Below are positions 131 to 21,469 of a DNA stretch of 33,145 nucleotides, piece after piece (positions within the stretch are counted from its first letter, which is position 1; every line of letters starts with the position of its first letter). Both the position numbers and the translations under genes were made by a program. This DNA is from Verrucomicrobiota bacterium (GTDB lineage Bacteria; Verrucomicrobiota; Verrucomicrobiia; Limisphaerales; J093): positions 1 to 33,145 of the forward strand of contig JAAYVR010000248.1 of the NCBI GenBank assembly GCA_012517065.1, given 5' to 3'. Under the pieces are notes generated by a model. The model searched no databases, was not told the origin of the DNA, and was given only the letters and a program-made list of their open reading frames with translations.

Positions 131-137
131 CCGGATC

Positions 138-291: not shown

Positions 292-320
292 GCGTGTTTC
301 TAGACTGTGCGAGAGTGGCT

Positions 321-3508: not shown

Positions 3509-3526
3509 CTGTTATTGTGTTTTGCC

Positions 3527-4633
3527 ATGTCGTACTCGATGTCTGATTTGCTGCAACTGATGGTGCAGGAAGGAGCATCTGACCTTCACCTGCGGGTGGG
3601 CGTGCCGCCGGTGATCCGCCTGCACGGGATTCTTCACAGGGTTGAGGGGCCGCCATTGCGACCCGAGGACACCGAAGAACTGATGCGAACGATTACCTCG
3701 GAGGAAAACGTTCAGCAGGTCCGCGAACGCGGGACTGTGGACTTCGGTTTTGCGTTCGGAGAGTTGGCGCGGTTCCGCGTGAGTGTTTTCAAAGAGCGCG
3801 GGAATTTCGGCGTGGTTGCCCGGCAGATCCCGAACAAGATGATGACGCTGGAGCAGATCGGCCTGCCGCCGTCCGTGCGCGAATTGCTTTACAAGCCGCG
3901 TGGATTGGTTCTGGTTACTGGGCCGACCGGGTCGGGGAAGACGACCACACTTGCGTCGATGATCAACATCATAAATGAGGAACGCGACGACGCGCACATT
4001 GTTACCATCGAGGATCCGATCGAGTATTATCACAAGCACAAGAAGGCGATCATAACACAGCGCGAGGTGAACGTTGACGTTCCGAACTTTGCCGAGGCGC
4101 TGAGGCGTGTTTTGCGGCAGGACCCGGACGTGATTCTGGTGGGCGAGTTACGCGACCTGGAAACGATGGATGCGGCGATCACTGCTGCTGAAACCGGGCA
4201 CCTTGTCTTTGGGACCTTGCACACGACCGGCGCGGCCAAGACAATTGACCGTCTTGTGAACGCATTCCCGGTGACGCAGCAGGAGCAAATCCGGATTCAG
4301 CTTTCGACTGTTTTGCAGGCGGTTATTTCACAGTTGCTTTTGCCGAGATGCGACAAGCCGGGCCGGGTGGCCATATTTGAGATCATGATCAACACCCCGT
4401 CGATCAGCGCGCTCATACGCGACAACAAGACGTTTCGTATCCAGTCGGACATTCAAACCGGAGCAAAATACGGGATGGTCACGCTCGACAGCTTCTTGTT
4501 GGACAAGTACCAGGCGGGAATGATTTCCCAGGAAGAGGTTATTACGAAGGCCCAGGACCCGGTTTCGATATTGCAAAAACTGCAGGAACTTGAAGCGGGC
4601 AAAGCATTGGCTGAAGTTGAAGGTCGCAGGTAA
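3527..4633 (+). CDS. pilT: Type IV pilus twitching/retraction ATPase PilT
   Basis: 368 residues from ATG 3527 (an upstream TTG at 3515 is less likely; ATG 3539 is also possible). The [10 protein letters not shown]-terminal motif is characteristic of PilT. Walker A GPTGSGKT is at 132-139, the Asp/Walker B segment [13 protein letters not shown] at about 198-210, and the His box [12 protein letters not shown] near 223-234. The C-terminal [10 protein letters not shown] segment corresponds to the AIRNLIRE motif needed for retraction. It lacks the MshEN domain and zinc cysteines of the flanking PilB paralogues, as expected. PilT depolymerises pili, giving twitching motility and DNA uptake. Its presence argues that the block serves true type IV pili rather than only a type II secretion system. 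Its stop is 2 nt from the next start. Confidence 0.95.
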
Positions 4634-4635
4634 TC

Positions 4636-6336
4636 ATGGCTGATATTTCATCAAATCCGTTGTTGGCTTTGATTCGCGAGCGCGGGTTGGCGGACGACAT
4701 GCAGCTCGAAGAAGTAATGGCAGAGCACGCTCGCACTGGCCGCCCGGTTGGCCAGATTCTGCTCGACTATGGAATAGTGGATACCGACACCCAGCTCCAG
4801 ATAATCGCGGAACATCTGGGGACGGAAGCGGTTACGATCAATGAGCTAGATCTGACCCCGGAAGTGATTGAGACAGTGCCGGCAGCCACAGCGCGAATGT
4901 ACCAGTGTTTGCCGGTGGCCGTCGAAGGCGGTGTGGTTAAGATTGCGCTGGTTGATCCGCTCAACCCGGCGGTGATCGATGAGCTGGGGTTCTCACTGGG
5001 CAAAGAAGTGCGCATTGTGGTTGCTGACCCCGCCCAGGTCGAGAAACTGATTCGGAAGTTTTATCCTGAGGACAGCGAGGGCGTTGGGGATTTGCTCAAG
5101 CAGCTTGGGGCGGATGAGGACATTGCCAAGGAGGTTGTCGAGGCTGAGGGCGGTTCGATAGACCTATCGAGCCTTGCCAATGAAGCTCCGATAATCAAAT
5201 TCGTGAACCTAGTGTTGTTCCAAGCGGTGCAGGATCGTGCAAGTGACATTCATTTCGAGCCGTTCGAAGACGAATTCAAGATTCGGTATCGTGTTGACGG
5301 TGCTTTGTACGAAATGACTCCGCCGCCGAAACATCTGGCTTTGCCGGTGACGTCGCGCATCAAGGTTATGGCCGATCTTGACATTTCGGAGCGGCGTTTG
5401 CCTCAGGACGGGCGCATATCGCTTACGATTGGGGGGCGCCAGGTTGACATGCGTGTTTCGACTTTGCCGACGCAATTTGGCGAGTCTGTGGTGCTTCGTG
5501 TTCTGGACCGGTCGGCCATGCAACTCGAGATGGAGAACCTCGGTTTTCCGAAGTTCATTTATGACTACATGGTTGAGGCGATCCAGCAGCCCAATGGCAT
5601 TATTATTGTTACCGGACCGACCGGCTGCGGCAAGACCACGACGCTTTACTCGTGTTTGAGGCGGATTAACACGATCGACTCGAAACTTTTGACGGTTGAA
5701 GACCCGGTCGAGTACGACATCGAAGGCATCATGCAGGTGCCGGTGCACGAGGCTGTTGGGATGACTTTTGCCAAGGCATTGCGCGCGTTTTTGCGGCAGG
5801 ACCCGGACATTATCATGGTGGGTGAAATGCGCGATTTGGAGACGGCGCAGGTGGCAATCCAGGCGTCATTGACCGGTCACTTGGTTATGACGACGCTTCA
5901 TACCAATGACGCCCCGGGAGCTGTCACGCGCATGATTGACATGGGCGTCGAACCGTTCCTGATTTCATCCACTCTTTTGGCGGTGTTGGCGCAACGGCTG
6001 GTCAGGATGATCTGCAAGCGGTGCCGGACGCCATTCGAGCCGACAGAGTCGCAGCTTGCGCTGCTGAATCTGTCTCCGCACGACGTTGGTGACAAGGTGT
6101 TTTACTATGGGCGTGGGTGCAAGGAATGCAACGATACCGGGTACCGCGGGCGAAAAGGAATCTTCGAGCTATTGCCGATCAGCGAGCCAATACGCATTTT
6201 GATAAACGAACGTTCACCCACGGCTGTGATAAGGCAGAAAGCGATTGAATTGGGAATGGTGACTCTGCGCGAAGACGGTTTGCGGTGCATTTTCGACGGC
6301 GATACCACCATTGAAGAAGTGCTGAAGTACACTTGA
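4636..6336 (+). CDS. GspE/PilB-family secretion/pilus assembly ATPase, paralogue 2
   Basis: 566 residues. An MshEN-like N-terminal domain (about 1-145, with [14 protein letters not shown]) is followed by the ATPase core. Walker A GPTGCGKT is at 327-334, [14 protein letters not shown] ends near 400, [15 protein letters not shown] lies at about 411-425, and the zinc cysteines are C460, C463, C495 and C498. It shares order and length with the gene at 1695 but is clearly divergent, so it is an old paralogue rather than a recent duplication. Two assembly ATPases on either side of pilT suggest either two alternative extension motors or one motor each for a pilus and a type II-like machine. Tight spacing (2 nt after pilT, 14 nt before pilC) supports co-transcription. 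Confidence 0.93.
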
Positions 6337-6350
6337 TTTGGAGAAACCCT

Positions 6351-7706
6351 ATGCCGAAGTTCAATTACGTCGCGATGGATTCCCGTGGCAAAGAGACCAA
6401 GGGAACACTCGAAGTCGCCAATCAGAACGAAGCCATTACCCGCCTCAAGGAAATGGGGTTTTTCCCGACGAAAGTCGTTGAGGCGGAAAAGCCCAAGGAA
6501 AAAGGGGGCAAGAAAGGCAAACCCGCCCCGGCTGCTGGCGAGAGAAAGAAGGGCAAAGGGATCAACATCAACATCCCGTTCCTTGGAGGCAAGGTTGGAA
6601 CGAAGGTTATGACTGCTTTCACGCGGCAGCTTGCGACGTTGGTGGATGCAGGGTTGCCGTTGCTGCGTGGGATGCGGGTGCTCGAGCGTCAGGAACGCAA
6701 CCCCACGCTCAAGCAGATCATCGGTGAGATGGCTGTTGCGATTGAAGGCGGCAGTACTTTTTCGGAGGCGCTGGCGCAACATCCGAAAGTTTTCAACCGG
6801 CTCTATGTCAACATGGTCAAGGCGGGCGAGCTTGGCGGTGTTTTGGAAGTTGTCTTGAACCGCCTTGCCGAGTTCATGGAAAAAGCGCAGAAGATCAGGG
6901 GCAAAGTCAAGGCTGCTCTGTTCTATCCCGTGGCGGTGTTGACGGTGGCGACGGTGATTCTTGGTGTGTTGATGGTGTTTGTGGTGCCGCGGTTTCAGGC
7001 GATATTCTCCGACATGCTGGAGGGGGCCGCACTTCCGGGCTTTACGCGGGTTGTATTGGATATTGCAAATGCGATCAAGAGCAGAACCATCCTGCTGTTT
7101 GACGGGCCGCCGTACGTGCTTCCCGGGCCTGTGATTTGGATCATCGTGGGCATTATCGTGGCGTTCAAGCTGTTTGTAAGGTGGCGCAAGGGGCGTTGGT
7201 TATGGGACAAAGTGAAACTCAACATGCCTGTCTTCGGTCCTGTGATAAGCAAGGTTGCCATTGCGCGATTCACTCGGACGTTGGGCACGCTGGTCAGCAG
7301 CGGTGTTCCAATTCTTCAGGCGCTCACGATTGTAAAGGAGACGTCTGGCAACGTTGTCATTGGGGAGGCTGTGTCCCGCATTCATGAGAGCGTTAAAGAG
7401 GGCGATACGATTACCGCGCCGCTGGACGCGTCCAATATCTTCCCTCCGATGGTGGTGAGCATGGTGGACGTTGGTGAGCAGACCGGTGCGCTTCCGGAAA
7501 TGTTGATGAAGATCGCCGACACTTACGAGGAAGAGGTGGATAACGCGGTGTCGGCCATGACTTCGCTTCTGGAGCCGGTCATGATCGTTTTTCTGGCTGT
7601 GATTGTTGGTAGCATTGTAATTGCGTTGTTCCTGCCGTTGATAGACCTCATCAACCGCCTTGGCAGTGAGGGTGAGGGCAGCAAGTCGGAAGGCACTGCT
7701 GAATGA
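6351..7706 (+). CDS. pilC: PilC/GspF-family inner-membrane platform protein
   Basis: 451 residues from ATG 6351, preceded at a normal distance by GGAGAAA, one of the clearest ribosome sites in the window. An upstream in-frame TTG at 6333 is unlikely. It opens with KFNYVAMDSRGKE, typical of PilC, then a lysine-rich linker (about 46-75). Two T2SSF domains follow: the first around 90-212 (FTRQLATLVDAGLPLLRG, KAGELGG), the second around 300-425 (FTRTLGTLVSSGVPILQAL, VGEQTGALPEML). Hydrophobic spans near 195-220, 265-285 and 420-440 are transmembrane. The family forms the platform that couples PilB/PilT ATPases to pilin addition or removal. Confidence 0.94.
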   Translation: MPKFNYVAMDSRGKETKGTLEVANQNEAITRLKEMGFFPTKVVEAEKPKEKGGKKGKPAPAAGERKKGKGININIPFLGGKVGTKVMTAFTRQLATLVDAGLPLLRGMRVLERQERNPTLKQIIGEMAVAIEGGSTFSEALAQHPKVFNRLYVNMVKAGELGGVLEVVLNRLAEFMEKAQKIRGKVKAALFYPVAVLTVATVILGVLMVFVVPRFQAIFSDMLEGAALPGFTRVVLDIANAIKSRTILLFDGPPYVLPGPVIWIIVGIIVAFKLFVRWRKGRWLWDKVKLNMPVFGPVISKVAIARFTRTLGTLVSSGVPILQALTIVKETSGNVVIGEAVSRIHESVKEGDTITAPLDASNIFPPMVVSMVDVGEQTGALPEMLMKIADTYEEEVDNAVSAMTSLLEPVMIVFLAVIVGSIVIALFLPLIDLINRLGSEGEGSKSEGTAE

Positions 7707-7740: not shown

Positions 7741-10700
7741 ATGAAAAACCTTCGTTGGCTGCAAGTCGGCCTGGGCATCGCCCTGTTGGCGTCGATAGTT
7801 GTCTTGTTCAAACCGTCTTTGCGATCCGGTGCAACCGGTCGCGGCAATGCCGATCCGCCGGTTTCGGCCAGAAGCGTTGATTCAGCAAAGACAAACCCGC
7901 TGCTCTCAGTCGCTGCTTGTGAGCAAGGGAATTTCCCATCGCCCAAGCTTGAGACAGCGGTCAAGCCTACCGACCGCCCTGTCACTGAGAACTCTGCGCC
8001 GGAGGCGATACACGCTGAATTCGCCAACTGGGTTGGCGAGTTCCTCAGCGCAAGAGCTTCTGGAACTGCACTTCCATCGTTTGCCAAAGGCAGCCGCCTT
8101 GCCGCCGCGCGCCGCGCGGCTCTGGCGCAGGCCATCAAAGAAGACCCGCAATCGGCTTTGGAAATGGCTGTTCCGTGGCAGTGGCGCGAAGTGCTCCCGC
8201 CAGAAATCACCGCGCATTTTGAGGAGGTTGTGAGCGCGCGAGGGAACCTTGATGTTTTCTGTGCGCTGCCTCTGCCGGGGCCGGATTACCGCGAGTTCAG
8301 GCCCGGTCTGATGCGTTATGCGACTATCAATGGCCGAACTTATCAGGCTTATGTCTATGGGAAACGCGCCCGGCAAATGAGCCAGCGCAACATTGCCATC
8401 GAAGGCATTGCGGTGGACAATTTACTGGCGATTTCCGAGGAACCGGTTCGGGTGCTGGATGCGGACGAAACCCGGGCGATGACGCGGGTTGGCAAAGCGC
8501 CGGCATCTGCCAAGTGCGCTCTCTGTGGTTCCGGGCCGGTGGCGGGGCAGGATCGTCTCTTGGTTTCGCACGGCGGTCAACTTCTTGATGTGTGCTGTCT
8601 TTCGCACGCTGGCGAGTTGGGGCGCACTCTCGCCGAGGTTGAACAGCGGGGACAGATTGCGCTTGCGTCTTCCGGTGGTGATACGTTTGGAGGGAACAGT
8701 TGGTGGACCAGCCAGCCTCCCGCGAGCCTGCAGGGTTCATTTGGCACAAAACGGGTGCTTTACATGCGCGTGGTGTTTCGTGATGACATTCGCGTGCCGA
8801 TCAGCGAGGGCGAAGCAATGGCCATCATGGACGAGGTTGACGCTTTTTACAAGGAGGCCTCTTACAACAAGACTGCTTTGATAACCACTGTAACGCCGGT
8901 GCTGACGCTTCCGCATCCGAAGCTCAACTATTCGACTTTGGGGCCCGGCGCGCTCTTACAGGACGCAATGACGGAAGCGATCAAACTCGGGTACAAGACT
9001 GAGAACTACGACCAGCTTATTCTGCAGTTCACGAGTGTTCCCGGCTACGAATGGGGCGGGTTGGGCGGCGGCGGAGTGGTTTGGATACAAGGTGCAGGCG
9101 TTGGGTTGATTGTCCACGAATTGGGCCACTGTTACGGGCTCGGGCACGCCAACTTCTGGGAGACGCGCCGCCCAGTTCTGCCGACCACGCCGCAGTTGCC
9201 GTTCGACATCGACAGTCTCGTCGGGCACGACAGTATCATCGGGGTGGGAGATGACATTGAATACGGGGATATCTTTGATGTTATGGGCAGCGGCGGCGGT
9301 GAGGCCACTGCAAGGACAAACCAGATGCTCACAGCGTTTGCGGGGCACTTCAACGCAATCGGAAAAGCACAGCTTGGATGGCTCACGGAGGCTTACATCG
9401 TCAAGGTCGCAACTGACGGAACAAACCGGATATACGTCCATGACACGCCGCGGTTGGTGGAAGGCCGGAGTTACGCGCTTCGGATTGCCAAGGACGCCCA
9501 GCGGGAGTACTGGATCAGTGCAAGGACCAAGGTTCCCAATCGTTGGTTGACGAACGGCGTTGAATTGCACTGGGCTGCATGGCAACAGGCGCAAGGGTAC
9601 AGCCAGTTGCTTGATACAACGCCCGGTTCGATCCACGGCCGCCAAGACGCTGCCATAGCTGTCGGCCGGACTTACGCCGATGAAGAATCAAAGGTTTATA
9701 TCACGCCTGTTGCCAGAGGCGGATCGGGCACCAACACATGGTACGACGTGGTTGTTTTCAGGGGCGAACGAAAAGACAACCTGCCGCCAGTGGTCACACT
9801 CTCGGTCTCGACGAACAAGACCCGACCGAACCAGCCGATAACTTTGACGGCGGATGCGATCGATCCGAATGGCGATGCGATGTCTTTTTACTGGGATTTG
9901 GGAGACGACACGGCCGGGCCAAATGCGGCAAGCATTGTTAAGGATTGGGCAACGCCGGGTGATTACGTTGTGCGCTGCGAGGTCAGCGACCTTCGCGGGG
10001 GCATAACCAGCAAACACATTGTGATCAGGGTCGGCGACCCCACCACGCTCAGAGTCAGCGGTTTTGTTGTTGATAACGCAGGAATGCCACTTCGGGGTGT
10101 TCGAGTCTCGAACGGTTCATTGACGGAGGGTGAGTACGAATATGCCGAGAACTACAAGTGGACCTACACGGACAGCGACGGAGCGTTTACTTTGGTTGGC
10201 CTGACAAACGGGGATTATCACGTGGGGGCCTATATCAATGGCTACGTAACAACACCGGCCAACTTTGGAGTTCCAATTACCTTGCGGGACCGTGACGCTT
10301 CCGGACTGACGTTCATTGCAAACCCGCTCCCACGGGTCACTGCAGAAGTTGTGCAGCATGCAGACGGTCCAACGAAGAAACCCGGCATTTTCCGGCTGAA
10401 ACGGACTGGTGACACCAATACGGCGCTCCAGGCGTTTTTCCTGTTGGGCGGCTCGGCAGCCGAACGCAAGGATTACGCAAGAATCAGCAATTCAGTTGTG
10501 AATCAAACCAACGTTGTGCCCACTCCGTTCGGCCCGAACACCCTTACTTTCAAGTTCTACGCTGTGGATTTTCCGACGGGCGTGGTTGAGACGAATATTA
10601 CGATCACGCCTCTTGTAACCAACGCGCCTGCTGGACAGGACAAAGATGTCGCGCTCACGGTCATGTATCCGCTGGAGGTCATGCGGCTCGAGCTTACGAA

Positions 10701-13700
10701 TGGCGAAGGCGGGCTCCTGGCCACGAACACCAATTATGTGTTTTTCAGCGATTGGGAAATCCGCAACGTGAACGGGCAAGAAACATGGTTCCAAAATTAC
10801 ACTGACTACGTGCCATGGTGGCCCGGTGAGGCTCGTCTCAGGATCGCCGCGCAAAAGGCGACATTGCCAATTGTGTCTCTGTTGGCTTCGGCAGCCGCCA
10901 CGGAGAATGCAATTGATGCTGCGCAATTCACCGTGCTCAGGAGCGGCGTGATGGATGTTCCTGTGACGGTTCAGTTGACTGTCGAGGGGACAGCCGTGCC
11001 GGGGTCGGATTACGAGGCTCTGCCAAGCAGCGTGGTTATTCCCGCGAACGCCTCGTTTGTGACCATCCCGGTTTATGTGCGGCCCAACCTGTATCTTGAC
11101 GGCAACCGGACGGTCAAACTCAAGATCGCCGCCGACCCGGCGTATCAGGTCGGTACCGGCGAGGCCACAGTTACCATTGCCGACAACGACCTCCCACTGG
11201 TGACCATTACGGCTACGCAGCCTGTTGGCAGTGAGTCTGGCTCCGTTACCGCGGTCATGATGGTCACACGTGCGGGAGACATGACGCGCGAATTGACAGT
11301 TAACTATTTGGTTTCGGGAACTGCGGTAAGCGGCCGTGATTACCGAGCGCTGCCAGGGGCGGTAACAATTCCCGCAGGCCAGCCGTCAGCGGCGATAGTT
11401 GTTACGCCGCGCGACAATGGAATTCGCGACGGTGGCAACACCGTCCAGGTGTTCATATCGGATAGTCCGACATACAACGTCGGCTATCCCAACGCTGCCA
11501 CAGTCTTCATCCAAGACAGGGCGCTTCCCGTTGTTACAGTGAGAGCCACTGACGAAACTGCTGCCGAACCCAGTGAAACTGGCGAGTTCGTGCTCACGCG
11601 AACCGGCGACACCAGCCGCGAGTTGGAAGTGTTCATCAAGACCGGCGGCACTGCCAAACCGTTTGCGGATTACGTGTCTTTGGGCGAGCGCGTGGTGTTC
11701 CCGCGGAATGCTTCAACGGTGACACTGACAGTTGCGCCCGTGGACGATCGATTGCGTGAGGACCAGGAAACGGTGATTTTGGAAGTTCTGCCCGGACTGG
11801 ATTATTACGCAGGATCGCCGTCGCAGGCGGTGGTGACAATCAACGATGACGATTCCAGCTCGGCATTGGCTGTTGGATTCAGTTTCTTGAGTTCTACCAA
11901 CTATGAGACGCCAGGCCAGGCGCTTATCGCTGTCGCAATCACAGGCAACCCGCAAGAGGACAATCCTGTGACTGTCGATTACAAGGTCACTGGCGGAACT
12001 GCCATTCCTGACGTTGATTACCCGCTGACGAGTTCAACGGGCCGTCTGATGTTCGTTCACGGCCCGGATGGTGGCAAGGACCAGTACACCAACCGCACCC
12101 AATTGATACCTTTTGTTTACACCAATGACAGCGAGGCGAAGCCGGACAGGACTGTGGTGCTGACGCTCATAGCGCCGCCGCCGTTCATAAGCAACTGGCT
12201 CAGCACCAATGACATCACCATTACAAATGAAAGCGGCGAAACGATCACAACCAACGAGGTTGTGACCAACTCGACGTTGGTTACGATCCCGATGAACGCG
12301 TCATTTGATGTCTATCAGAGTCACACGCTGACCATACTTGACGATGACGCTTCGGTGATCACCGTTGAAGCAACGGACCCGGTGGCGTATGAGCAAGGTT
12401 TGGACCCGGCCGTGTTCACGATCAAGCGCACAGTGGTAACGAACCGCGCCCAGAAAGTCCGGTTCCAATTGTCCGGTCTTGCTGCTAATGGCAGCGATTA
12501 TCAGACCATCGAAACAACAGTTGAGATTCCGCCAGGGTGGGATTCGATTCAAATCCCTGTAATGCCGGTTGATGACCCGGTTCAGGAGTACATCGAGGAT
12601 GTCAAACTAACGCTGCTAGAGACGCCCGGCGCGCAGATTGGCGACCCGAGCGCTGCCACGGTGACCATAATTGACAACGATGGGACAGTGGAGTTTGCCC
12701 GGACTGCGTACTCTGTGCCTGAGAACGTCGGCATTGCCAACATCCCGGTTCGGCGTACTTCTGACACCAACGCGTTGGTGACAGTCGATTTCACGGTCAC
12801 CGCGGGCACCGCCGTGCCAGATGTCGATTTCGTTGTGACCAATGGTGTGCTGGTGTTCCAACCTGGGGAGACAGTCAAGAACCTCCAAGTCCCGGTCCTT
12901 GACGATCTTGTGACGGAGCCAACCAAGACAGTTAACCTGACATTGCTCAACCCCAGTGGCGGCGCAGCGTTGGGCGGCCAGACAACAGCCGTGTTGAATA
13001 TCGAGGACGACGACACTGCGGTCGAGTTTGCCGGCGCCGCATTTACAGTGTATGAGCACGAGACCAACGCCGTTGTCACTCTGCGCAGGATTGGTGTTTT
13101 GACTAACGTCGCCCAGATCACCTTCGTTGCCACCAATGGAACTGCGGTTGACGGCGTCGATTTCGTCGCCACAAATCAGACCGTTTCTTTCGTGCCGGGA
13201 CAGACCTTGACAAATGTGTTTCTGAGGGTTCTCGACAATACCTTGATAGAATCGAACAAGACGGTATTACTCACGCTGCTAACCAATGAGCTTGTGACCA
13301 CAAGTGTGGGACCGCAAGGGAACGCCACACTGACAATTGTGGAGAACGATTGCGCCATTCAATTTGCCGCGACGAATTACTCCGTCATCGAGTACGCCAA
13401 GGTTGTTAATCTCGATGTCCAGCGTATTGGCGGGACAGTTCATCCTGTGCAGGTTGATTACAGAACGGTGGACGGTACTGCAAACTCCGGCCGCGATTAC
13501 CAGAGCATTTCCGGCACGATAACATTTACGGGTGATACGAATGTGCTGGCTCTTGATGGTTCCGGCAGGCTTGTGTTCCAACCCGGTGAAACCAACAAGA
13601 CCATTCAGGTCCGCATTTTGGATGACAATCTCGGCGAGGGCGATGAGTTGTTTTTGGTTCGCCTGCAAAATCCGCGGGCTGCGGTCAATGTGCCGACGAA

Positions 13701-16383
13701 CACCGTTGTGTTGGGGCCGGTCACAAGTGCTGGAGTCACAATCATCGACGACGAAACGCCCGGGCAGGTTGATTTTGCGTTCAATCCGGGCCAGGGCGCC
13801 GATGGTCCTGTCTATGCGCTTGCATTGCAGAGCGATGGCAAGGTGGTAATCGGCGGGGCGTTTACGAGCATCGACGGAATTATTCTCAACCGCGTGGCGC
13901 GGTTGCATGAGGATGGTTATCTGGACAGTTTTCTGACGCCGGGCGAGGGGACTGACGGCGACGTTCATGCGATTGCTGTACAGCCCGACGGCCGCATTCT
14001 GATAGGCGGAGATTTCCGAAGTGTCAACGGCGTGCCAAGTATTCGGCTGGCCCGGTTGAATGCTGATGGGTCTGTACACGACGGGTTCAAACCGGGGCTT
14101 GGACCTGACGGCCGCGTCAGGGCCATCGCTGTTCAGCCCGATGGCGCGATCTTGATCGGCGGCGACTTCAATTCAGTGGTTGGCGCGCCGCGCGTTGGGA
14201 TTGCAAGGTTGACGTCAGACGGGATGGTTGATCAAACGTTTGATCCTGGTGCGGGCGCGCCCGGTGTCTATGCAATCGCGGTTCAACCTGACGGCAAGAT
14301 ACTGATCGCAGGCGCTTTCACGAGCGCGGCGGGCTCGGCGCAGCGGTACATTGCCCGGCTGAATCAGGACGGGTCGCTTGATCGCACATTCAACACGGGC
14401 GCCGGTCCGGACGGCATGGTGCGGTCAATTGCGCTTCTGGCTGACGGCCGAATCGTGATCGGCGGAGACTTTGAAACCTTCGCGGGCATATCGCGGTACG
14501 GCGTGGCCAGACTTAACGCTGACGGGTCCCTCGATACTGCCTTTGAACCGCCAACCGATGCCGACGGCGTCGTGTACGCCGTTGGGGCGCTATCCGACGG
14601 AAAGGTCATGGTTGGCGGCGCGTTTACGACGTTTGGCGGTTTGCCGCTTGCACGTTTCGCTCGGCTTAACCCGAACGGGACTGTGGACACCAGTTTCCAG
14701 ATTGGCACGGGCGCCAATGACCTTGTGCGTGCGCTGGTCGTGCAGCCTGACACGGCGGTTGTCATTGGCGGCGATTTCACAGAAGTCAACGGGCTCGACC
14801 GGAAGCGGATCGCGCGCATCCACGGCGACGAGAAGTTCCGGTTGAACACGGTCCAGTTCAGCGCGGCATTCTATCGCGCACCGGAAAACGGAACAAACGC
14901 CGTTATCACTGTCGTGCGCGGGGGCGATGTCACAACCAGCTTTGCTGTGAATTATGGGACGCGTGATGGCACCGCGATCGCAGGCAAGGATTATACAGAA
15001 ACAAACGGCTCGCTCACATTCGCCGCGGGTGAGACTGTGAAGACATTCGAGGTGCCGATTCTCGACAACCTGCTTGCCGAGGGCGACAAAACCGTCGGTT
15101 TATTCCTCACGAATATTCCGTCTGGATTCAGCCTGTCTGCAAGGTTGACGGCGACGCTGGTCATCGAAGACAACGAAAGCGCTCTGGCTTTCAGTGCGCC
15201 GACCTATACGGTGAGCGAGGGTGCTGGTGTTGCGACGATCACCGTGCGTAGGACCGGGCCGAACGCAACTGAGGCAAGCGTTGACTACGAAACGCGCGAT
15301 GACACTGCGGTTGCAGGAAAAGATTACGGGGAAACAAGAGGCACATTGTACTTCATGCCCGGCGAATCCGAAAAGAGCTTTGATGTGCCGATAATTGACA
15401 ACGACCAGATTGATCCGGACAGGAGTTTGTTTGTTGTTCTGAACAATCCAATCGGCGGGCCGGTTCTCGGGCTTCAATCGACAGCGGTTCTGACCATCAC
15501 GGATAACGACCGCGTCGAGTTCTACAGCCTTAACATTGTTCCGGCGATTGGCGGCACTGTCACGCCATCGTCCGGTTCATACAATGTTGGCACTGTGCTG
15601 TCGCTGTTCGCTGCTCCCGACAGAGATTACAAGTTCTCGGGCTGGACCGGGACGATCAACTCGGCGGCGAATCCGTTGTTTATTGTGATGGACAAGAACT
15701 ACACGCTCAAAGCCAACTTTGTGCCTGTACAGTTCACTTACACGTTCGAGCCGCCGTTTACGGCCGCGAATCTGGCATCGGCTCCATGGGTAAGCTCGAC
15801 GACCAAGCCATGGCAGCTCCAGTCGGCCACGGCTTCTGGCGGCCGGTTCGCACTCCGATCGGCCCCAATTGGCGACGGTGAAGACAGCACGCTGTCTTTG
15901 GTTGTGGTGACACGCGCCGGGGCGGGTTCGTTTGATTTCCGCGTTAGTTCAGAGGCAAACTGGGACTTCTTCGAGTTCTACGTCAACGGCGTGAAGATCG
16001 ATCGCTGGTCTGGAGACGTTCCGTGGCGATCCTACCAGTTCAACCTTGTTGCGGGCCGAAACACGCTCACATGGCGCTATGTCAAGGACAACAACTTCAG
16101 CAGCGGCCTTGACGCAGCGTTTATTGACAATCTGTTTGTGCCGCTGGATGTGCCTGACCCGACCGATCCTGCGGCCCGGTTGTCGGTGATTGATCTTCCG
16201 TCCACTGGATTCCATATTCTGCTCGAGGGACGGGCTGGCAATACTTACGTCACAGAAGTCAGCAGTGACCTTGTCGAGTGGCAGCCCATCTCAACCAACA
16301 CGCTCGGCGGCACTACAGCGATTATTACGGACCTCCAGGCGCCCGCTCGCTCGCATCGGTTCTACAGAGCGTACACGCGCTGA
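7741..16383 (+). CDS. Giant secreted metzincin-like protein with Calx-beta, delta-60 propeller and InlB-type repeats
   Basis: 2880 residues from ATG 7741 (MKNLRWLQVG then a hydrophobic span); a longer frame from 7660 overlaps pilC. Domains in order: signal sequence/anchor; pro-region with a CxxC...CC element (C259, C262, C285, C286); metzincin-type protease with HELGHCYGLGH at 459-469 and Met-turn DVMGSG at M515, resembling M6/M11 peptidases; PKD-like domain about 681-764; carboxypeptidase-regulatory-like domain about 769-840; about eight Calx-beta domains about 1040-2007 (plus a degenerate one before), many ending in xxIxDND; seven delta-60 repeats about 2009-2364 (PDGxILIGGDF); two more Calx-beta about 2367-2590; one InlB-type repeat about 2592-2664; a beta-sandwich about 2665-2803; and a C-terminal module with DLVEWQPISTN and RFYRAY. 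Expected to be exported, calcium-binding and cell-surface or released. It lies 34 nt after pilC and 33 nt before serS. Confidence 0.9.
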   Translation: MKNLRWLQVGLGIALLASIVVLFKPSLRSGATGRGNADPPVSARSVDSAKTNPLLSVAACEQGNFPSPKLETAVKPTDRPVTENSAPEAIHAEFANWVGEFLSARASGTALPSFAKGSRLAAARRAALAQAIKEDPQSALEMAVPWQWREVLPPEITAHFEEVVSARGNLDVFCALPLPGPDYREFRPGLMRYATINGRTYQAYVYGKRARQMSQRNIAIEGIAVDNLLAISEEPVRVLDADETRAMTRVGKAPASAKCALCGSGPVAGQDRLLVSHGGQLLDVCCLSHAGELGRTLAEVEQRGQIALASSGGDTFGGNSWWTSQPPASLQGSFGTKRVLYMRVVFRDDIRVPISEGEAMAIMDEVDAFYKEASYNKTALITTVTPVLTLPHPKLNYSTLGPGALLQDAMTEAIKLGYKTENYDQLILQFTSVPGYEWGGLGGGGVVWIQGAGVGLIVHELGHCYGLGHANFWETRRPVLPTTPQLPFDIDSLVGHDSIIGVGDDIEYGDIFDVMGSGGGEATARTNQMLTAFAGHFNAIGKAQLGWLTEAYIVKVATDGTNRIYVHDTPRLVEGRSYALRIAKDAQREYWISARTKVPNRWLTNGVELHWAAWQQAQGYSQLLDTTPGSIHGRQDAAIAVGRTYADEESKVYITPVARGGSGTNTWYDVVVFRGERKDNLPPVVTLSVSTNKTRPNQPITLTADAIDPNGDAMSFYWDLGDDTAGPNAASIVKDWATPGDYVVRCEVSDLRGGITSKHIVIRVGDPTTLRVSGFVVDNAGMPLRGVRVSNGSLTEGEYEYAENYKWTYTDSDGAFTLVGLTNGDYHVGAYINGYVTTPANFGVPITLRDRDASGLTFIANPLPRVTAEVVQHADGPTKKPGIFRLKRTGDTNTALQAFFLLGGSAAERKDYARISNSVVNQTNVVPTPFGPNTLTFKFYAVDFPTGVVETNITITPLVTNAPAGQDKDVALTVMYPLEVMRLELTNGEGGLLATNTNYVFFSDWEIRNVNGQETWFQNYTDYVPWWPGEARLRIAAQKATLPIVSLLASAAATENAIDAAQFTVLRSGVMDVPVTVQLTVEGTAVPGSDYEALPSSVVIPANASFVTIPVYVRPNLYLDGNRTVKLKIAADPAYQVGTGEATVTIADNDLPLVTITATQPVGSESGSVTAVMMVTRAGDMTRELTVNYLVSGTAVSGRDYRALPGAVTIPAGQPSAAIVVTPRDNGIRDGGNTVQVFISDSPTYNVGYPNAATVFIQDRALPVVTVRATDETAAEPSETGEFVLTRTGDTSRELEVFIKTGGTAKPFADYVSLGERVVFPRNASTVTLTVAPVDDRLREDQETVILEVLPGLDYYAGSPSQAVVTINDDDSSSALAVGFSFLSSTNYETPGQALIAVAITGNPQEDNPVTVDYKVTGGTAIPDVDYPLTSSTGRLMFVHGPDGGKDQYTNRTQLIPFVYTNDSEAKPDRTVVLTLIAPPPFISNWLSTNDITITNESGETITTNEVVTNSTLVTIPMNASFDVYQSHTLTILDDDASVITVEATDPVAYEQGLDPAVFTIKRTVVTNRAQKVRFQLSGLAANGSDYQTIETTVEIPPGWDSIQIPVMPVDDPVQEYIEDVKLTLLETPGAQIGDPSAATVTIIDNDGTVEFARTAYSVPENVGIANIPVRRTSDTNALVTVDFTVTAGTAVPDVDFVVTNGVLVFQPGETVKNLQVPVLDDLVTEPTKTVNLTLLNPSGGAALGGQTTAVLNIEDDDTAVEFAGAAFTVYEHETNAVVTLRRIGVLTNVAQITFVATNGTAVDGVDFVATNQTVSFVPGQTLTNVFLRVLDNTLIESNKTVLLTLLTNELVTTSVGPQGNATLTIVENDCAIQFAATNYSVIEYAKVVNLDVQRIGGTVHPVQVDYRTVDGTANSGRDYQSISGTITFTGDTNVLALDGSGRLVFQPGETNKTIQVRILDDNLGEGDELFLVRLQNPRAAVNVPTNTVVLGPVTSAGVTIIDDETPGQVDFAFNPGQGADGPVYALALQSDGKVVIGGAFTSIDGIILNRVARLHEDGYLDSFLTPGEGTDGDVHAIAVQPDGRILIGGDFRSVNGVPSIRLARLNADGSVHDGFKPGLGPDGRVRAIAVQPDGAILIGGDFNSVVGAPRVGIARLTSDGMVDQTFDPGAGAPGVYAIAVQPDGKILIAGAFTSAAGSAQRYIARLNQDGSLDRTFNTGAGPDGMVRSIALLADGRIVIGGDFETFAGISRYGVARLNADGSLDTAFEPPTDADGVVYAVGALSDGKVMVGGAFTTFGGLPLARFARLNPNGTVDTSFQIGTGANDLVRALVVQPDTAVVIGGDFTEVNGLDRKRIARIHGDEKFRLNTVQFSAAFYRAPENGTNAVITVVRGGDVTTSFAVNYGTRDGTAIAGKDYTETNGSLTFAAGETVKTFEVPILDNLLAEGDKTVGLFLTNIPSGFSLSARLTATLVIEDNESALAFSAPTYTVSEGAGVATITVRRTGPNATEASVDYETRDDTAVAGKDYGETRGTLYFMPGESEKSFDVPIIDNDQIDPDRSLFVVLNNPIGGPVLGLQSTAVLTITDNDRVEFYSLNIVPAIGGTVTPSSGSYNVGTVLSLFAAPDRDYKFSGWTGTINSAANPLFIVMDKNYTLKANFVPVQFTYTFEPPFTAANLASAPWVSSTTKPWQLQSATASGGRFALRSAPIGDGEDSTLSLVVVTRAGAGSFDFRVSSEANWDFFEFYVNGVKIDRWSGDVPWRSYQFNLVAGRNTLTWRYVKDNNFSSGLDAAFIDNLFVPLDVPDPTDPAARLSVIDLPSTGFHILLEGRAGNTYVTEVSSDLVEWQPISTNTLGGTTAIITDLQAPARSHRFYRAYTR

Positions 16384-16416: not shown

Positions 16417-17718
16417 ATGCTGGACATTCGCATCATCCGGGAAAACCCCGACGCGGTGAGAGAGCGGCTTGCGGCCCGCGGCATCTCCGACAAGGACCAC
16501 GTTGCAGAGTTGCTGGCCCTGGACGAGCGCCGCCGAAGCCTGTTGGTCGAGGTCGAGTCGTTGAAGGCGCAGCGGAATCGTGCTTCCAAAGAAATCGGTG
16601 CGCTGCTGGCCCAGAAAATGACCGCCGAGGCCGAAGCGAAGAAGGCTGAAACGCGGGCAATTGGCGATCGAATCGCCGCGTTGGATCGCGAGGTCGCGCA
16701 GGTTGAACAGGAACGCGAGGCGATTTTGATTCGCCTTCCGAATCTTCCCCATGCAAGCGTGCCAATCGGCCGGTCTTCGGCAGACAATGTTGTGGTGCGG
16801 AGTTGGGGTGAACAACGGAAATTCGATTTTACCCCTGCCGGGCATGTGGACTTGTGCGAGCGACTGAAGCTTGTTGATTTTGCCCGTGGCGCCAAGCTTT
16901 CAGGCAGTGGCTTCCTTCTCTACACGGGATGGGGGGCAAGGCTTGAACGCGCGCTGATCCAGTTCATGTTGGATTTGCACGTCGAGAAACACGGTTACAC
17001 CGAGGTGTCGCCGCCGTTCATTGTCAGTCGGGATTGCATGTTTGGCGTGGGGCAGTTCCCAAAGTTTGAAGATCAGGCCTATGCAGTTCAGGAAGGGCTG
17101 GATTCTTCCACGCTGGGCAAGCTGTATCTGCTTCCGACGGCCGAAGCCCCGGTGGCAAACATCCATCGCGAAGAGATACTCAAAGATGCTGCGCTTCCGA
17201 TTCGGTATGTTGCGTACAGCCCCTGCTTTCGCGCCGAGGCTGGAGCGGCCGGGGTCGATACACGCGGCATGATTCGCGTGCACCAGTTCGACAAGGTTGA
17301 ACTGATAAAGGTCGTTGCTCCGGAGCGCGGTTACGACGAGCTCGAGTCGATGGTTGCAGATGCAGAGGAAGTTCTGCAGCTCCTTGGTTTGCATTACCGC
17401 GTGGTGCTTCTTTGCACCGGGGACATGGGATTTGCAAGTGCCAAGACGTACGACATCGAAGTCTGGGCACCTGCGCAGCGACAATACCTCGAAGTCTCAA
17501 GTTGCTCCAATTGTGCTGACTTCCAAGCGCGCCGCATGAATCTGCGCTACAAGACTCAATCCGGTGAAAACCGGTTCCCCCACACACTCAACGGCAGCGG
17601 CACGGCTCTTGCGCGACTGTTTGTCGCTCTTCTCGAGACACATCAACAATCCGACGGAAGCATAGCCATACCGGTTCCCCTCCAACCTTACCTGAAATCC
17701 CCGATAATTCGGGCGTAG
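16417..17718 (+). CDS. serS: Seryl-tRNA synthetase
   Basis: 433 residues, full length for bacterial class II SerRS. It charges tRNA-Ser (and tRNA-Sec where present) with serine in the cytoplasm. The N-terminal tRNA-binding antiparallel coiled coil spans about 27-105. The catalytic core shows TAEAPVAN near 241-248 (serine-binding TxE), motif 2 CFRAEAGAAGVDTRGMIRVH from 270, and motif 3 LNGSGTALARLFVALLE near 397-413. Start is ATG 16417 behind AAGGAAG. It sits 33 nt after the giant secreted protein gene, so read-through from the pilus block is possible, though function is unrelated. Confidence 0.97.
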   Translation: MLDIRIIRENPDAVRERLAARGISDKDHVAELLALDERRRSLLVEVESLKAQRNRASKEIGALLAQKMTAEAEAKKAETRAIGDRIAALDREVAQVEQEREAILIRLPNLPHASVPIGRSSADNVVVRSWGEQRKFDFTPAGHVDLCERLKLVDFARGAKLSGSGFLLYTGWGARLERALIQFMLDLHVEKHGYTEVSPPFIVSRDCMFGVGQFPKFEDQAYAVQEGLDSSTLGKLYLLPTAEAPVANIHREEILKDAALPIRYVAYSPCFRAEAGAAGVDTRGMIRVHQFDKVELIKVVAPERGYDELESMVADAEEVLQLLGLHYRVVLLCTGDMGFASAKTYDIEVWAPAQRQYLEVSSCSNCADFQARRMNLRYKTQSGENRFPHTLNGSGTALARLFVALLETHQQSDGSIAIPVPLQPYLKSPIIRA

Positions 17719-17828: not shown

Positions 17829-19295
17829 TCAGTGATTGCTTCGGGCTGCCTGGGCCGCCGCAGCGTAGAGTTGGATGTATTCTTGGACCGGACGATCCCA
17901 TGCATGGTCTGAGGCGGCGGCATTGGCTGTTATCCTTGCCCAGTGCTTGCGCTGTTTGAACAGCGCAAGCGCCCGTTCAATTGCATGCTCGAGTTCGTCC
18001 TCGGTGGGGGTTTGGAGGAGCCAGCCGTTGCCTTCTCCCGTGATCGGATTGTACTCCGTGAAATTATCTGCCAGACCGCCCGTACGGGTCACGACGCATG
18101 GGACGCGGTGTCTCAGAGCGACGACCGGGCGTGTCCCGCACGGCTCGAATTCCGACGGGTAAAGGAAAATGTCGATGGCGCGAAATACGACTTTTTGTTC
18201 TGCTGTGCTGTAGCTGCGAACGAACCTCACGTTGCGCGGCCACCGCTGTGCCAGCATTTCGAGGTTTGCTGATGTTTCGACTGCGTACTGATCCTTCGGA
18301 TGTCCCTCGCCAAGGTAAACGAATTGCAGTCCGCCGTTGGTTTTTTCCAGCAGGCGGCCAATAACGGTCGCAGCGAGTTTGACACCTTTCTGTTTGTCGA
18401 TTCGGGACACCATGCCAAGCAGTGGAATTTGCTTTCGACACTCGAAGCCAAATTGGTTCTGAAGCTCGGCTTTTGTCCGTGCTTTGTCTTCAGGAGTGAT
18501 CGATGGCCATTCATGGTACGAGATGCCATTAACAATCCCGACGAAATCCTGTGCGCGTTCTTGATAGTCTCTTTCGAGGCCGAAACCTCCGAACGGCGTC
18601 AACATTTCCTCGCGGTTTGTACGCGAAACGGCGTTGAGTTTGTGAGCGTATCGGACGCCTCCCCGCAGAAGGCAGAACTTGTCAGGTTCACCCGGTTGTT
18701 CAAGGTTTGGCCAGTGTTCGCCGTTGATCCCCAGCTCGGGGAATCGGTGTCCCGGAATCCACCCGCCCATATGCTTTGCATTGTGAACGGTCAGCACCGA
18801 AGCGGTTTGTTGGAATATGGGATTGTTGCCGTACTTTGCGCGGAGAAGAACGGGCACCAAAGCTGTTGGCCAGTCATGAGCGTGCAGAATATCCGGCCGG
18901 TCCATCAATCCAAGATGCACCATCGCTTCGATGGCTCGGAATGCTCCTTCGCAAAGGGCGAGCGCGAAATCCAGTGGGCTGGGGCCTTCGTAAGCTTCAC
19001 GTATGAGTCCGGGGATTGACAGGAAACAATGTGTCACGCCGTTGTAAACTCCTCGCAACACGCTCATTTCGTATTTGTGCGGGCCGATGGCGACAGAACA
19101 TGAGACACCCCCTTCGATGCACGGAGGCGGATTTGCTTGCATTGACTCGTACCACCCGGTCACAAGATGGGTGGTCAGCCCTGTACGGCTCAATGCCGCA
19201 GCCAGTTCGCCGCAAACGTTGCCCAATCCGCCCTTGCGATAGAAAGGCTCTGCCTCGGGCGCTACCAGAATCACATTTCGAATTGGTGGTGTCAC
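17829..19295 (-). CDS. glgA: Glycogen/starch synthase (GT5 family, ADP-glucose type)
   Basis: 488 residues from GTG 19295 (MTPPIRNVILVAPEAEPF), which places the first beta strand at the usual distance. An upstream TTG at 19340 would add 15 residues. The N-terminal ADP-glucose motif, normally KTGGL, reads RKGGLGNVCGEL, a modest variant. C-terminal landmarks are FEPCGTRPVVALR and RTGGLADN, matching the EPCG and GGL motifs of GT5 enzymes. DILHAHDWPTALVPVLL and LTVHNAKHMGGWIPG are further GT5 signatures. It would elongate alpha-1,4-glucan from nucleotide-glucose in the cytoplasm. Transcribed toward serS; no other glycogen gene is adjacent. Confidence 0.9.
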   Translation of the reverse strand: MTPPIRNVILVAPEAEPFYRKGGLGNVCGELAAALSRTGLTTHLVTGWYESMQANPPPCIEGGVSCSVAIGPHKYEMSVLRGVYNGVTHCFLSIPGLIREAYEGPSPLDFALALCEGAFRAIEAMVHLGLMDRPDILHAHDWPTALVPVLLRAKYGNNPIFQQTASVLTVHNAKHMGGWIPGHRFPELGINGEHWPNLEQPGEPDKFCLLRGGVRYAHKLNAVSRTNREEMLTPFGGFGLERDYQERAQDFVGIVNGISYHEWPSITPEDKARTKAELQNQFGFECRKQIPLLGMVSRIDKQKGVKLAATVIGRLLEKTNGGLQFVYLGEGHPKDQYAVETSANLEMLAQRWPRNVRFVRSYSTAEQKVVFRAIDIFLYPSEFEPCGTRPVVALRHRVPCVVTRTGGLADNFTEYNPITGEGNGWLLQTPTEDELEHAIERALALFKQRKHWARITANAAASDHAWDRPVQEYIQLYAAAAQAARSNH

Positions 19296-19615
19296 TTGTC
19301 CCAGCACATTGCAAACCCGCCGTATCGCAACGCAGCCCAATCAGTTCGGACTTTGCACAGTCCAGTTTCGGCTGCGCCGCGTTGTGTCTCAAACGGCGCC
19401 GCACAGATTCCGCGCGATTCCCTGTTGGCGTCAACTTGAAAAACGTTGCGTTGGTGTACCAGAATTGTCCGGACCACGGGCGTATTTGCCGCACACAACG
19501 CATAAGATGCGCCCGCGGGCAGGTGTGGCGCGTGGGCTTTCGCTCTGTCCAAGGTGTTGGCAGGAACGCTATTCCGGACTTCCATTTGAGACCTCGTTTG
19601 CACAAGATTGGCGCC
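19296..19615. other. 320-bp divergent intergenic region
   Basis: This stretch separates the divergently transcribed glycogen synthase gene and the membrane-anchored repeat-protein gene, so it should contain both promoters. I looked for sigma-70 boxes, dyads and RNA-like hairpins and saw none convincing. Open frames continue through it from the antisense of the synthase gene but resemble no protein. Confidence 0.5.
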
Positions 19616-21469
19616 ATGGACGAACCGTCGCGCAGAAGGCAATTGGCCGATCGATATCTCAATTATCCATTGATATCGATGCTGATTCTCAGCCCTGCGT
19701 TTCCTTTGACCATCGCGGGGTTGATCCTTTTGGGAATCCTGATTGGCCTTTGCATTCCGAAGCTTTGGGTGACCAGTCCGCCCGATTTCAGTCCAAAGAT
19801 CAAAGTGAGTGCTATTGACCTTGCCCAGGCTGCAATACTGAGGCATCGAGCCAGAAAGCTTGAATCGGAGGGCAAGTTCGAAGAAGCGCATTATTCGTGG
19901 CAAAGTGCAATCGCGAACAATCAAGGCGATGCTTCCCTTGTTGCTGCAGCTCTGACCAATATCATCCGGGTTCAGAATCCGCCTCAGCAAATGATTAACG
20001 CTGCTGTAAACCAGGCGTTCTGGCTGATGCGGTTGACACGGACCAACGATCTCGCTCGCGCAGTTGCAGGCGCAGTTTTTGTAAAGTGTCGCGTGCCCGA
20101 GTTCACCTACAATCTTCTGCAGAACCTTCAACCCCCTTTGCCACCCGCACAGGAAACCGCAATGCTTAAAGCATTGTTCTTAACCGGCAGAATAGGAGAA
20201 TACCGCGACCGCCGGGACAAATTCAGGCAATTGCTGCCGTCTGATCGTGAACTCGACGTTTGCGATGCGGGCTACATGGCCGAATGGGGGCCAGCCGACA
20301 AAGCTGCTGAAGCACGAAAACTCCTCGCCAGCGCAATTGAGGACCGGGACCTGCAGGAATTTGCATGCCGCGTGCAGACGGTTGTGGCCGCAAGGGTTCA
20401 AGACCCCGCAAGATACGAATATGCCCTTGAACGGCTCCGCCAAATCCAGGCTGATACAACCGCAGACCATATTGGCTACTGGAAGCTGCTCGAAGCTGCT
20501 GGGCGTCTGGCTGATGCGCGTCGATTGGCGGAAAGTTATCCCTATCCACCAACCACACCTGCCGAAGTCCTACAATTCAGCAGTGCGCTCATTTCCCTCG
20601 GCGCAACGGATCAAGCCGAGAGGTTGTTTGCACGTTACGCTCCGGCTTTTGCAAACACCGACAATGTGGACGTCGCTGCAATCTGGGTCCGATACGCCGA
20701 GCTGCTTATCCAGTCCAGGAAATGGGATGATCTGCAGACACTCGCAGTGCAGTTGAGAACACTCTCGCCGATTCGCACAATGCTGACTGGATACAGTTAT
20801 TTTCTCGAAGGACGCGCAGCTCTCGCCAGGGGCCGGACGGAAGAAGCAGCCGCTAATTTCAAGAAATGCGTCGAAGAGCCTTTCTATGTGCCGGCCGCGG
20901 GCATGCACACCGCGCGTAGCCTGCTGCTGCTCGGACACGCCGATCTTGCAGATCAGATTATTGGACAATTGGAACAGTTTCTGGCGAATGATGTTGAATA
21001 CTGGCAGTTGGTTTTCGAAATCAGCTATGCGCTAAAACAAGATGAAGCCCGGCTCTTGCGTGCTGCAATAAAGGCGCGCGAGCTCGAGCCAAACAAACTG
21101 GTGTATAATGTGAATTACGCCGCCGCCTTGCTTATATGCCGTCAGAATCCGGCCGAGGCGGCGAAAATCACGCTGACGTTTTTTCAAAGTTACCCCGATT
21201 CTCTCATTGCGACGGTCAACCACTGTTTTGCTCTGGCATTGAACAAACGGTTCGACGAAGCAGCCGATATCCTGAAGAAGATCAATACCGCCGCGCTCGG
21301 CGGGTTCGAGTCAACCATTTGCCATTTGTGTTGGCTCGAGATTCATTTCGGCCGTGGCGAACTGGATTCGGCTCGCGAAGATTTGAAACACATCAACACG
21401 AAACTGCTTTTCCCGGGGCAGATCAAATGGATCGAATCGGTGCGCCACCAGATTGAATCGGCGCGATAG
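19616..21469 (+). CDS. Membrane-anchored helical-repeat (TPR-like) protein of unknown function
   Basis: 617 residues from ATG 19616 (MDEPSRRRQLADRYL). The open frame extends further upstream to 19016 but that part lies antisense to the glycogen synthase gene and looks spurious. A single strong hydrophobic segment around residues 22-46 (PAFPLTIAGLILLGILIGLC) predicts one membrane anchor with the bulk on one side. The rest is alanine/leucine-rich and helical, with TPR-like pairs such as KLESEGKFEEAHYSWQSAI near 80, GRAALARGRTEEAAANFKKC near 405 and ALALNKRFDEAADILKKIN near 550. It is likely a protein-interaction scaffold. The stop (TAG 21467-21469) overlaps a GTG by one base, but the methyltransferase more plausibly begins at 21634. 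Confidence 0.75.
   Translation: MDEPSRRRQLADRYLNYPLISMLILSPAFPLTIAGLILLGILIGLCIPKLWVTSPPDFSPKIKVSAIDLAQAAILRHRARKLESEGKFEEAHYSWQSAIANNQGDASLVAAALTNIIRVQNPPQQMINAAVNQAFWLMRLTRTNDLARAVAGAVFVKCRVPEFTYNLLQNLQPPLPPAQETAMLKALFLTGRIGEYRDRRDKFRQLLPSDRELDVCDAGYMAEWGPADKAAEARKLLASAIEDRDLQEFACRVQTVVAARVQDPARYEYALERLRQIQADTTADHIGYWKLLEAAGRLADARRLAESYPYPPTTPAEVLQFSSALISLGATDQAERLFARYAPAFANTDNVDVAAIWVRYAELLIQSRKWDDLQTLAVQLRTLSPIRTMLTGYSYFLEGRAALARGRTEEAAANFKKCVEEPFYVPAAGMHTARSLLLLGHADLADQIIGQLEQFLANDVEYWQLVFEISYALKQDEARLLRAAIKARELEPNKLVYNVNYAAALLICRQNPAEAAKITLTFFQSYPDSLIATVNHCFALALNKRFDEAADILKKINTAALGGFESTICHLCWLEIHFGRGELDSAREDLKHINTKLLFPGQIKWIESVRHQIESAR

What the first reader, a model, noticed from the sequence alone, without database searches (positions are those of the whole stretch)
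7741..16383. Metzincin-headed giant protein in a pilus motor operon: candidate new secreted effector/adhesin
A full HExxHxxGxxH motif and Met-turn are fused to PKD, carboxypeptidase-regulatory, about ten Calx-beta, a seven-unit delta-60 propeller, InlB-type and lectin-like modules. I know of no characterised protein with this order. It lies 34 nt downstream of pilC, so it may be co-expressed with, and exported or displayed by, the pilus/type II-like machinery. Functions could include calcium-dependent adhesion, predation or matrix degradation.
Basis: partly seen in the sequence, partly recalled or inferred. Interest (0 to 1): 0.75.

Follow-up and report, generated by a model that had tools for sequence, protein, structure and literature searches.

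The report
Giant protease-adhesin linked to pilus machinery
A Verrucomicrobia bacterium encodes a 2,880-residue exported protein that joins a zinc protease to a long calcium-binding, sugar-binding stalk; relatives keep the whole protein and encode it at the end of a gene row that starts with pilus/secretin export parts, so it is probably a surface or extracellular degrading enzyme sent out by that machine.

Summary
The ORF is real (7741-16383, 2,880 aa) and the listed domains are present. The head is a metzincin (HELGHCYGLGH, Met515) whose predicted fold is closest to the M6 peptidase InhA2 (Z 21.4), with a prodomain holding one invariant cysteine. The protein is not a one-off: collinear full-length orthologues occur in 11 other genomes, eight of them in its own family.

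But in all eight other family genomes with the giant, it directly follows coaE at the end of a co-oriented locus. Where the contig reaches far enough, that locus runs pilM-pilN-pilO-secretin-exported proteins-protease-coaE-giant. So a pilus/secretin link is supported by a different, stronger route. In the window's genome that locus survives on other contigs without the giant, which now sits beside pilB-pilT-pilB-pilC.

Best reading: a zymogenic M6-like protease on a Ca-binding stalk with a sugar-binding tail, exported by a type IV pilus/type II-like machine. Export and activity are untested. Extras: a conserved two-piece secretin, and S8/M36 protease heads alternating on one body at one locus.

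The parts
7741..16383 (+). giant gene, 2,880 aa, 307 kDa, pI 4.7
   Evidence: collinear orthologues
7756..7809 (+). N-terminal hydrophobic segment (signal peptide or signal anchor; no clear AxA cleavage site)
   Evidence: sequence; similar in orthologues
7993..8670 (+). prodomain (aa 85-310); invariant Cys259 (codon 8515-8517), followed ~24 residues later by a mostly conserved C-x2-[SAG]-H
8668..9774 (+). M6-like metzincin catalytic region (aa 310-678); zinc site 9115-9147, Met-turn codon 9283-9285
9781..10020 (+). PKD domain (aa 681-760)
10054..10260 (+). carboxypeptidase-regulatory-like domain (aa 772-840), just under the Pfam cut-off
10860..13760 (+). Calx-beta array, eight repeats (about aa 1040-2006)
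   Evidence: repeat-end motifs at aa 1144-1999
13786..14821 (+). delta-60/DUF5122 propeller, seven units (about aa 2016-2360)
   Evidence: sequence
14848..15510 (+). two further Calx-beta repeats (about aa 2370-2590)
15523..15726 (+). InlB-type (Flg_new_2) repeat, start of the ~285-aa tail shared with proteins of the ancestral locus
15790..16149 (+). carbohydrate-binding-like beta-sandwich (aa 2684-2803)
16156..16380 (+). C-terminal '..RFYR' module; 56 profile matches in this genome
1695..3401 (+). PilB-type ATPase 1 (MshEN + T2SSE)
3515..4633 (+). PilT-type ATPase
4636..6336 (+). PilB-type ATPase 2
6333..7706 (+). PilC/T2SSF; orthologues conserved in the family but not next to the giant outside this genus
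16417..17718 (+). serS, 33 nt downstream; on other contigs in the relatives

Best explanation
The giant is an exported zymogen. A signal peptide or anchor takes it across the inner membrane. A prodomain with an invariant cysteine keeps an M6/InhA-like zinc protease silent. A Ca2+-stiffened stalk (10 Calx-beta, a seven-unit propeller, PKD) carries an InlB-like plus sugar-binding tail and a C-terminal module common to many proteins of this genome. It leaves the cell by the type IV pilus/type II-like machine (PilM-N-O plus a two-piece secretin) whose genes head its ancestral locus, possibly powered by the PilB/T/B/C motor beside which it now sits in this genus. Outside, tail and stalk hold it on a polymer or on the cell surface and the protease digests protein there. 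Shown: the gene, its domains, an intact invariant zinc site, whole-length conservation, locus conservation and the genus-specific move. Inferred: export route, cysteine latency, calcium binding, location, substrate.
For: Zinc site and Met-turn invariant. Head fold closest to the InhA2 zymogen, Z 21.4 over 309 residues, against 10.5 or less for every other entry listed; all 18 heads hit the NCBIfam M6 domain weakly. Cys259 invariant in the full-length orthologues. Nine of ten Calx-beta repeats end in an acidic motif of the D-x-[DE] kind. Tail domain matches VesC, Z 15.0; VesC is a type II secretion substrate (PMC13393428). PrtV, an M6 protease with PKD domains, leaves by type II secretion (PMC4519245). 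Locus pilM-pilN-pilO-secN-secC-exported proteins-S8/M36 protease-coaE-giant, one strand: all eight family genomes outside this genus that hold the giant have coaE directly upstream of it, and six have pilM on the same contig; PilM and secretin named by Pfam. The own genome keeps the locus without the giant and has the giant beside pilB-pilT-pilB-pilC, as does a second assembly of the genus. In the own genome the giant's ~285-aa tail is matched nearly end to end (about 40% identity) only by two proteins of that locus.
Against: No expression, secretion or activity data. The locus also holds housekeeping genes (coaE, a 5'-3' exonuclease), so neighbourhood need not mean function. Orthologues in G047, G026 and G053 lie in other surroundings. 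The genome has five secretin matches and several motor ATPases, so another machine could export it. Model coordinates could not be read, so Cys259 near the zinc is not shown. The signal sequence lacks a clear cleavage site.
Confidence: 0.5

Rival explanations
1. Same protease-adhesin, but exported by another route (the separate type II-like system on contig C182, or an unknown sorting path that reads the C-terminal '..RFYR' module); the neighbourhoods are incidental.
For: C182 carries a GspE/F and pseudopilin-like row and a secretin. The C-terminal module has 56 matches across the genome, most of them away from pilus genes; of 15 plus-strand copies checked, 13 end within 4 residues of the stop.
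Against: The exported proteins of the locus sit on one strand directly behind pilM-N-O-secretin in genome after genome.
Confidence: 0.3
2. One reading: co-transcribed with pilC in this genus and displayed on, or exported by, this pilus motor as an operon partner.
For: 34-nt gap, same strand, no consensus promoter or terminator; same arrangement in a second assembly of the genus.
Against: Adjacency absent in all other genera; pilC is followed there by pilin-like or unrelated genes. Sitting behind motor genes does not by itself make a substrate.
Confidence: 0.15
3. Mainly a Ca2+-dependent surface adhesin; the protease head serves only self-processing or release from the surface.
For: Three quarters of the protein is Calx-beta, propeller and binding modules, as in the adhesin BapP (PMC12153261); VesC frees itself by autocleavage (PMC13393428).
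Against: The catalytic region is among the best conserved parts (54-72% identity within the family, against mostly 40-63% for the stalk), and the same head occurs on many shorter proteins.
Confidence: 0.05

Closest known systems
InhA2, M6 peptidase zymogen (PDB 4yu5, 4yu6)
   Same: Best fold match to the head (Z 21.4, 309 residues); made as a zymogen; one of its beta-sandwich domains also resembles the giant's tail domain (Z 8.9)
   Different: 18-19% identity; ~700-residue chains without the giant's Calx-beta and delta-60 parts; third zinc ligand here is His (M6 usually has Asp, from memory)
PrtV of Vibrio cholerae (M6 + two PKD; PMC2613228, PMC4519245)
   Same: M6-type protease with PKD domains, N- and C-terminal processing, stabilised by Ca2+, exported by type II secretion
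   Different: 918 aa; only M6 and PKD domains described; not compared by sequence here
BapP of Pseudoalteromonas tunicata (PMC12153261)
   Same: Tandem Calx-beta repeats plus a beta-propeller in a large Ca2+-dependent surface protein
   Different: Described as an adhesin, without a protease head; compared there with RTX adhesins, whereas the giant shows no RTX repeats
VesC of Vibrio cholerae (PDB 6bqm)
   Same: Tail domain fold (Z 15.0, rmsd 2.0, 111 residues) on a secreted protease
   Different: Serine protease head; ends in GlyGly-CTERM, which the giant lacks
Paralogue on contig C73 of the same genome (L046, 1,905 aa)
   Same: Same kind of head (40% identity), PKD, CarboxypepD_reg, seven Calx-beta
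   Different: No delta-60 propeller found; Ig-like domains near the C-terminus instead

Membership tests
Metzincin clan | HExxHxxGxxH plus Met-turn | tested here: met
   aa 459-469 and M515, invariant in the homologues aligned
Peptidase family M6 (InhA) | fold of the InhA catalytic region | tested here: met
   InhA2 Z 21.4 over 309 residues; next other entry 10.5
Peptidase family M6 (InhA) | curated sequence-model score (TIGR03296 cut-off 110.8 bits; PF05547) | tested here: not met
   34.2 bits for the window head; PF05547 hit by 1 of 18 heads. Hence 'M6-like', not filed as M6
Peptidase family M66 | Pfam PF10462 gathering score | tested here: met
   28.3 against 20.6 bits, but only 56 of 306 profile positions around the zinc site
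Peptidase family M66 | M66 catalytic fold over its length | tested here: inconclusive
   no M66 entry recognised among the rows shown, which excludes nothing
Cysteine-switch zymogens | prodomain cysteine bound to the catalytic zinc | tested here: inconclusive
   Cys259 invariant; model coordinates not available
Type IV pilus / type II exported protein | gene linked to the machine across genomes | tested here: met
   pilM-N-O-secretin...coaE-giant locus; the pilC link is not conserved
Type IV pilus / type II exported protein | secretion depends on the machine | not testable with these tools
   needs mutants
RTX/Bap-type Calx-beta adhesin | Calx-beta array in a large exported protein | tested here: met
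   10 Calx-beta
RTX/Bap-type Calx-beta adhesin | RTX nonapeptide repeats | tested here: not met
   no such family in the Pfam and NCBIfam scans
GlyGly-CTERM protein | C-terminal Gly-rich stretch, membrane helix, basic tail | tested here: not met
   protein ends ..SHRFYRAYTR with no such helix

The most novel reading that the evidence does not exclude
A lineage-specific export machine, built from type IV pilus parts (PilM-N-O) and a secretin made as two separately exported polypeptides, serves a set of large surface proteases that share a body and tail and carry different catalytic heads (S8, M36, M6-like), the giant being the largest.
Probability: 0.3. Interest if true: 0.75.

Novelty: new variant of a known kind. 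Interest (0 to 1): 0.5.

Why it matters
Large multi-domain proteins of uncultured Verrucomicrobia are common and almost all uncharacterised, and how this phylum exports them is not settled. A 2,900-residue protease conserved end to end across genera, with a fixed place behind PilM-N-O-secretin genes, names a machine and a set of candidate cargoes and so makes the export question testable. The alternation of S8 and M36 heads on one body at one locus suggests a platform on which the enzyme changes while stalk and tail stay. The two-piece secretin, if real as protein, would be an unusual way to build an outer-membrane channel.

Tried and rejected
Assembly chimera: rejected, since a second assembly of the genus (G001, giant 91-98% identical) has the same pilB-pilT-pilB-pilC-giant order. 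pilC neighbourhood as ancestral: rejected. Conserved serS neighbourhood: serS is on other contigs than the giant in the relatives. Locus still joined to the window in this genus: the ends of C136 and C155 share only ~100-bp repeats with the window, which proves no adjacency. M66 (StcE-like) identity: Pfam hit short, fold favours M6; M66 chains were not seen among the listed rows, which excludes nothing. PDB by sequence profile: only weak hits to matrixins around the zinc motif. GlyGly-CTERM and RTX signals: absent. Cysteine switch by model: the tool gives no coordinates, so left open. Whether the S8/M36 alternation is a head swap in place or loss of old paralogues: body tree groups M36 bodies only at 94/94 with long branches, unresolved. 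Literature on Verrucomicrobia with Calx-beta or metalloproteases, on C-terminal sorting and on split secretins gave nothing on this architecture.

Full report
WHAT IS THERE. The window is the whole of contig C102 of a 5.26 Mb, 95% complete metagenome-type genome. The ORF 7741-16383 is intact (2,880 aa, 307 kDa, pI 4.7). Three things were missed: a prodomain before the catalytic part, the class of that catalytic part, and a C-terminal ~75-residue module ending in RFYR.

THE HEAD. Pfam calls M66 over 56 of 306 profile positions; NCBIfam calls the M6 domain weakly in all 18 heads scanned. An AlphaFold2 model of aa 85-680 (mean pLDDT 81.5) matches the M6 zymogen InhA2 at Z 21.4 over 309 residues; the next other entry is at 10.5. 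I therefore call it M6-like; its score lies far below the curated M6 cut-off. The zinc site is invariant. In the prodomain Cys259 is invariant in the full-length orthologues and is kept in nearly all relatives that have a prodomain of this type, in a C-x2-[CST]-G context, usually followed by C-x2-[SAG]-H. A cysteine latch on the zinc, as in other metzincins (PMC6949598), is a fair guess but is not shown.

THE STALK AND TAIL. Nine of ten Calx-beta repeats end in an acidic motif of the kind that binds calcium in this fold (function from general knowledge). A model of aa 2657-2880 (mean pLDDT 69) gives a beta-sandwich for aa 2684-2803 that matches VesC residues 398-508 at Z 15.0 and rmsd 2.0. VesC is a type II substrate whose scheme shows an Ig fold and a carbohydrate-binding domain (PMC13393428). 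The last module has 56 matches at E<=0.01 in the genome; of 15 plus-strand copies, 13 end within 4 residues of the stop (the minus-strand rows of that table are not oriented and were ignored). It may be a sorting or attachment module; that is inference.

CONSERVATION. Of 58 related genomes, 35 hold the head, often on shorter proteins. Eleven hold a collinear full-length version (2,702-3,043 aa as called) with mostly 40-65% identity per 120-residue block within the family. Eight of these are in the window's family; three are in other families of the order. Two family members in the named collection are Verrucomicrobia MAGs RA.bin27 and ADurb.Bin006. More distant heads occur in Planctomycetota, Myxococcaceae, Shewanella and others.

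NEIGHBOURHOOD: pilC. The giant follows pilC in the window and in G001, the only other genome of the genus held. The pilB-pilT-pilB-pilC block is present in the other family genomes examined, but there the giant is on another contig, and pilC is followed by pilin-like or unrelated genes.

NEIGHBOURHOOD: the ancestral locus. In all eight other family genomes with the giant, the gene before it is coaE, on the same strand. In G010 and G002 the coaE and giant reading frames overlap, which suggests translational coupling. Upstream come, in order, pilM, pilN-like, pilO-like, secretin first piece, secretin second piece, (5'-3' exonuclease), a ~640-aa and a ~500-aa protein, a ~1,000-aa exported protein, and a protease-headed protein of 1,230-1,550 aa; G005 and G006 add a propeller protein and a headless relative. 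Six genomes have pilM and the giant on one contig; in G005 and G006 the contig ends inside the locus. G004, which lacks the giant, keeps the locus up to coaE. The window's genome keeps it too, on C298 (pilM-N-O) and C136 (secretin to coaE, then propeller and headless protein), again without the giant. So the giant left this locus in the window's genus and now lies beside the motor half of a type IV pilus. Within the genome its ~285-aa tail is matched nearly end to end only by two proteins of C136, which ties it to that locus by descent.

HEADS THAT CHANGE. At the position before coaE the body and tail are homologous in all genomes (about 45-50% identity), but the catalytic head is a subtilase (S8) in G002, G003, G004, G010, G011, G013 and a fungalysin (M36) in G000, G001, G005, G006, G012. 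G012 and G003/G011/G013 are of one genus. Whether heads were swapped or old paralogues sorted is unresolved.

HOW IT MOST LIKELY WORKS. Exported as a zymogen, passed through the secretin by a type IV pilus/type II-like machine, then active outside on protein substrates while stalk and tail bind calcium and sugar. Precedents: PrtV, M6 with PKD domains, needs type II secretion (PMC4519245); BapP shows Calx-beta plus propeller in a calcium-dependent surface protein (PMC12153261). Export route and substrate remain inference; five secretin matches in the genome leave other routes open.

VERDICT. Observation confirmed; interpretation partly supported. All domain kinds are known; the fixed combination, its locus and the changing heads are a new variant. 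Interest 0.5.

Noticed in passing
L206:10804-13849 (G013); same in L203, L204, L205, L209, L211, L212; own genome C136:20229-21700: The secretin of the pilM-N-O locus is encoded as two ORFs. The first (signal peptide, TPR, Gly-rich insert) stops inside the secretin domain (profile position 44); the second (~195-205 aa) has its own signal peptide and carries positions 51-169 with the VPVLGDLPLLGRLF signature. Seen in at least seven genomes.
   Followed up: partly
L156:7899-12479 (M36), L036:3884-7675 (S8), L043:12291-16817 (M36), L039:3910-7593 (S8): At one syntenic position before coaE, a homologous ~760-aa body carries either a subtilase or a fungalysin head, even within one genus.
   Followed up: partly
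G000, 56 places, e.g. window 16153-16377: A C-terminal ~75-residue '..RFYR' module without a Pfam name ends many large proteins of this genome; a candidate sorting or attachment signal of the lineage.
   Followed up: partly
window 79-292 and 24755-24929; L156:332-450; L158:352-409: Interspersed ~100-bp repeat shared between the window and the ends of contigs C136 and C155 (78-93% identity); probably what breaks the assembly there.
   Followed up: no
L046:1330-7044: Paralogue of the giant in the same genome (1,905 aa): same head, seven Calx-beta, Ig-like domains near the C-terminus.
   Followed up: partly
window 18300-19019 and 19016-21469: Two overlapping ORFs (239 and 817 aa) without a usable Pfam match.
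   Followed up: no
L076: Record titled Klebsiella pneumoniae (MAG bin-52) carries a distant head homologue ending in ..RYFRFSVW; the species label looks doubtful.
   Followed up: no
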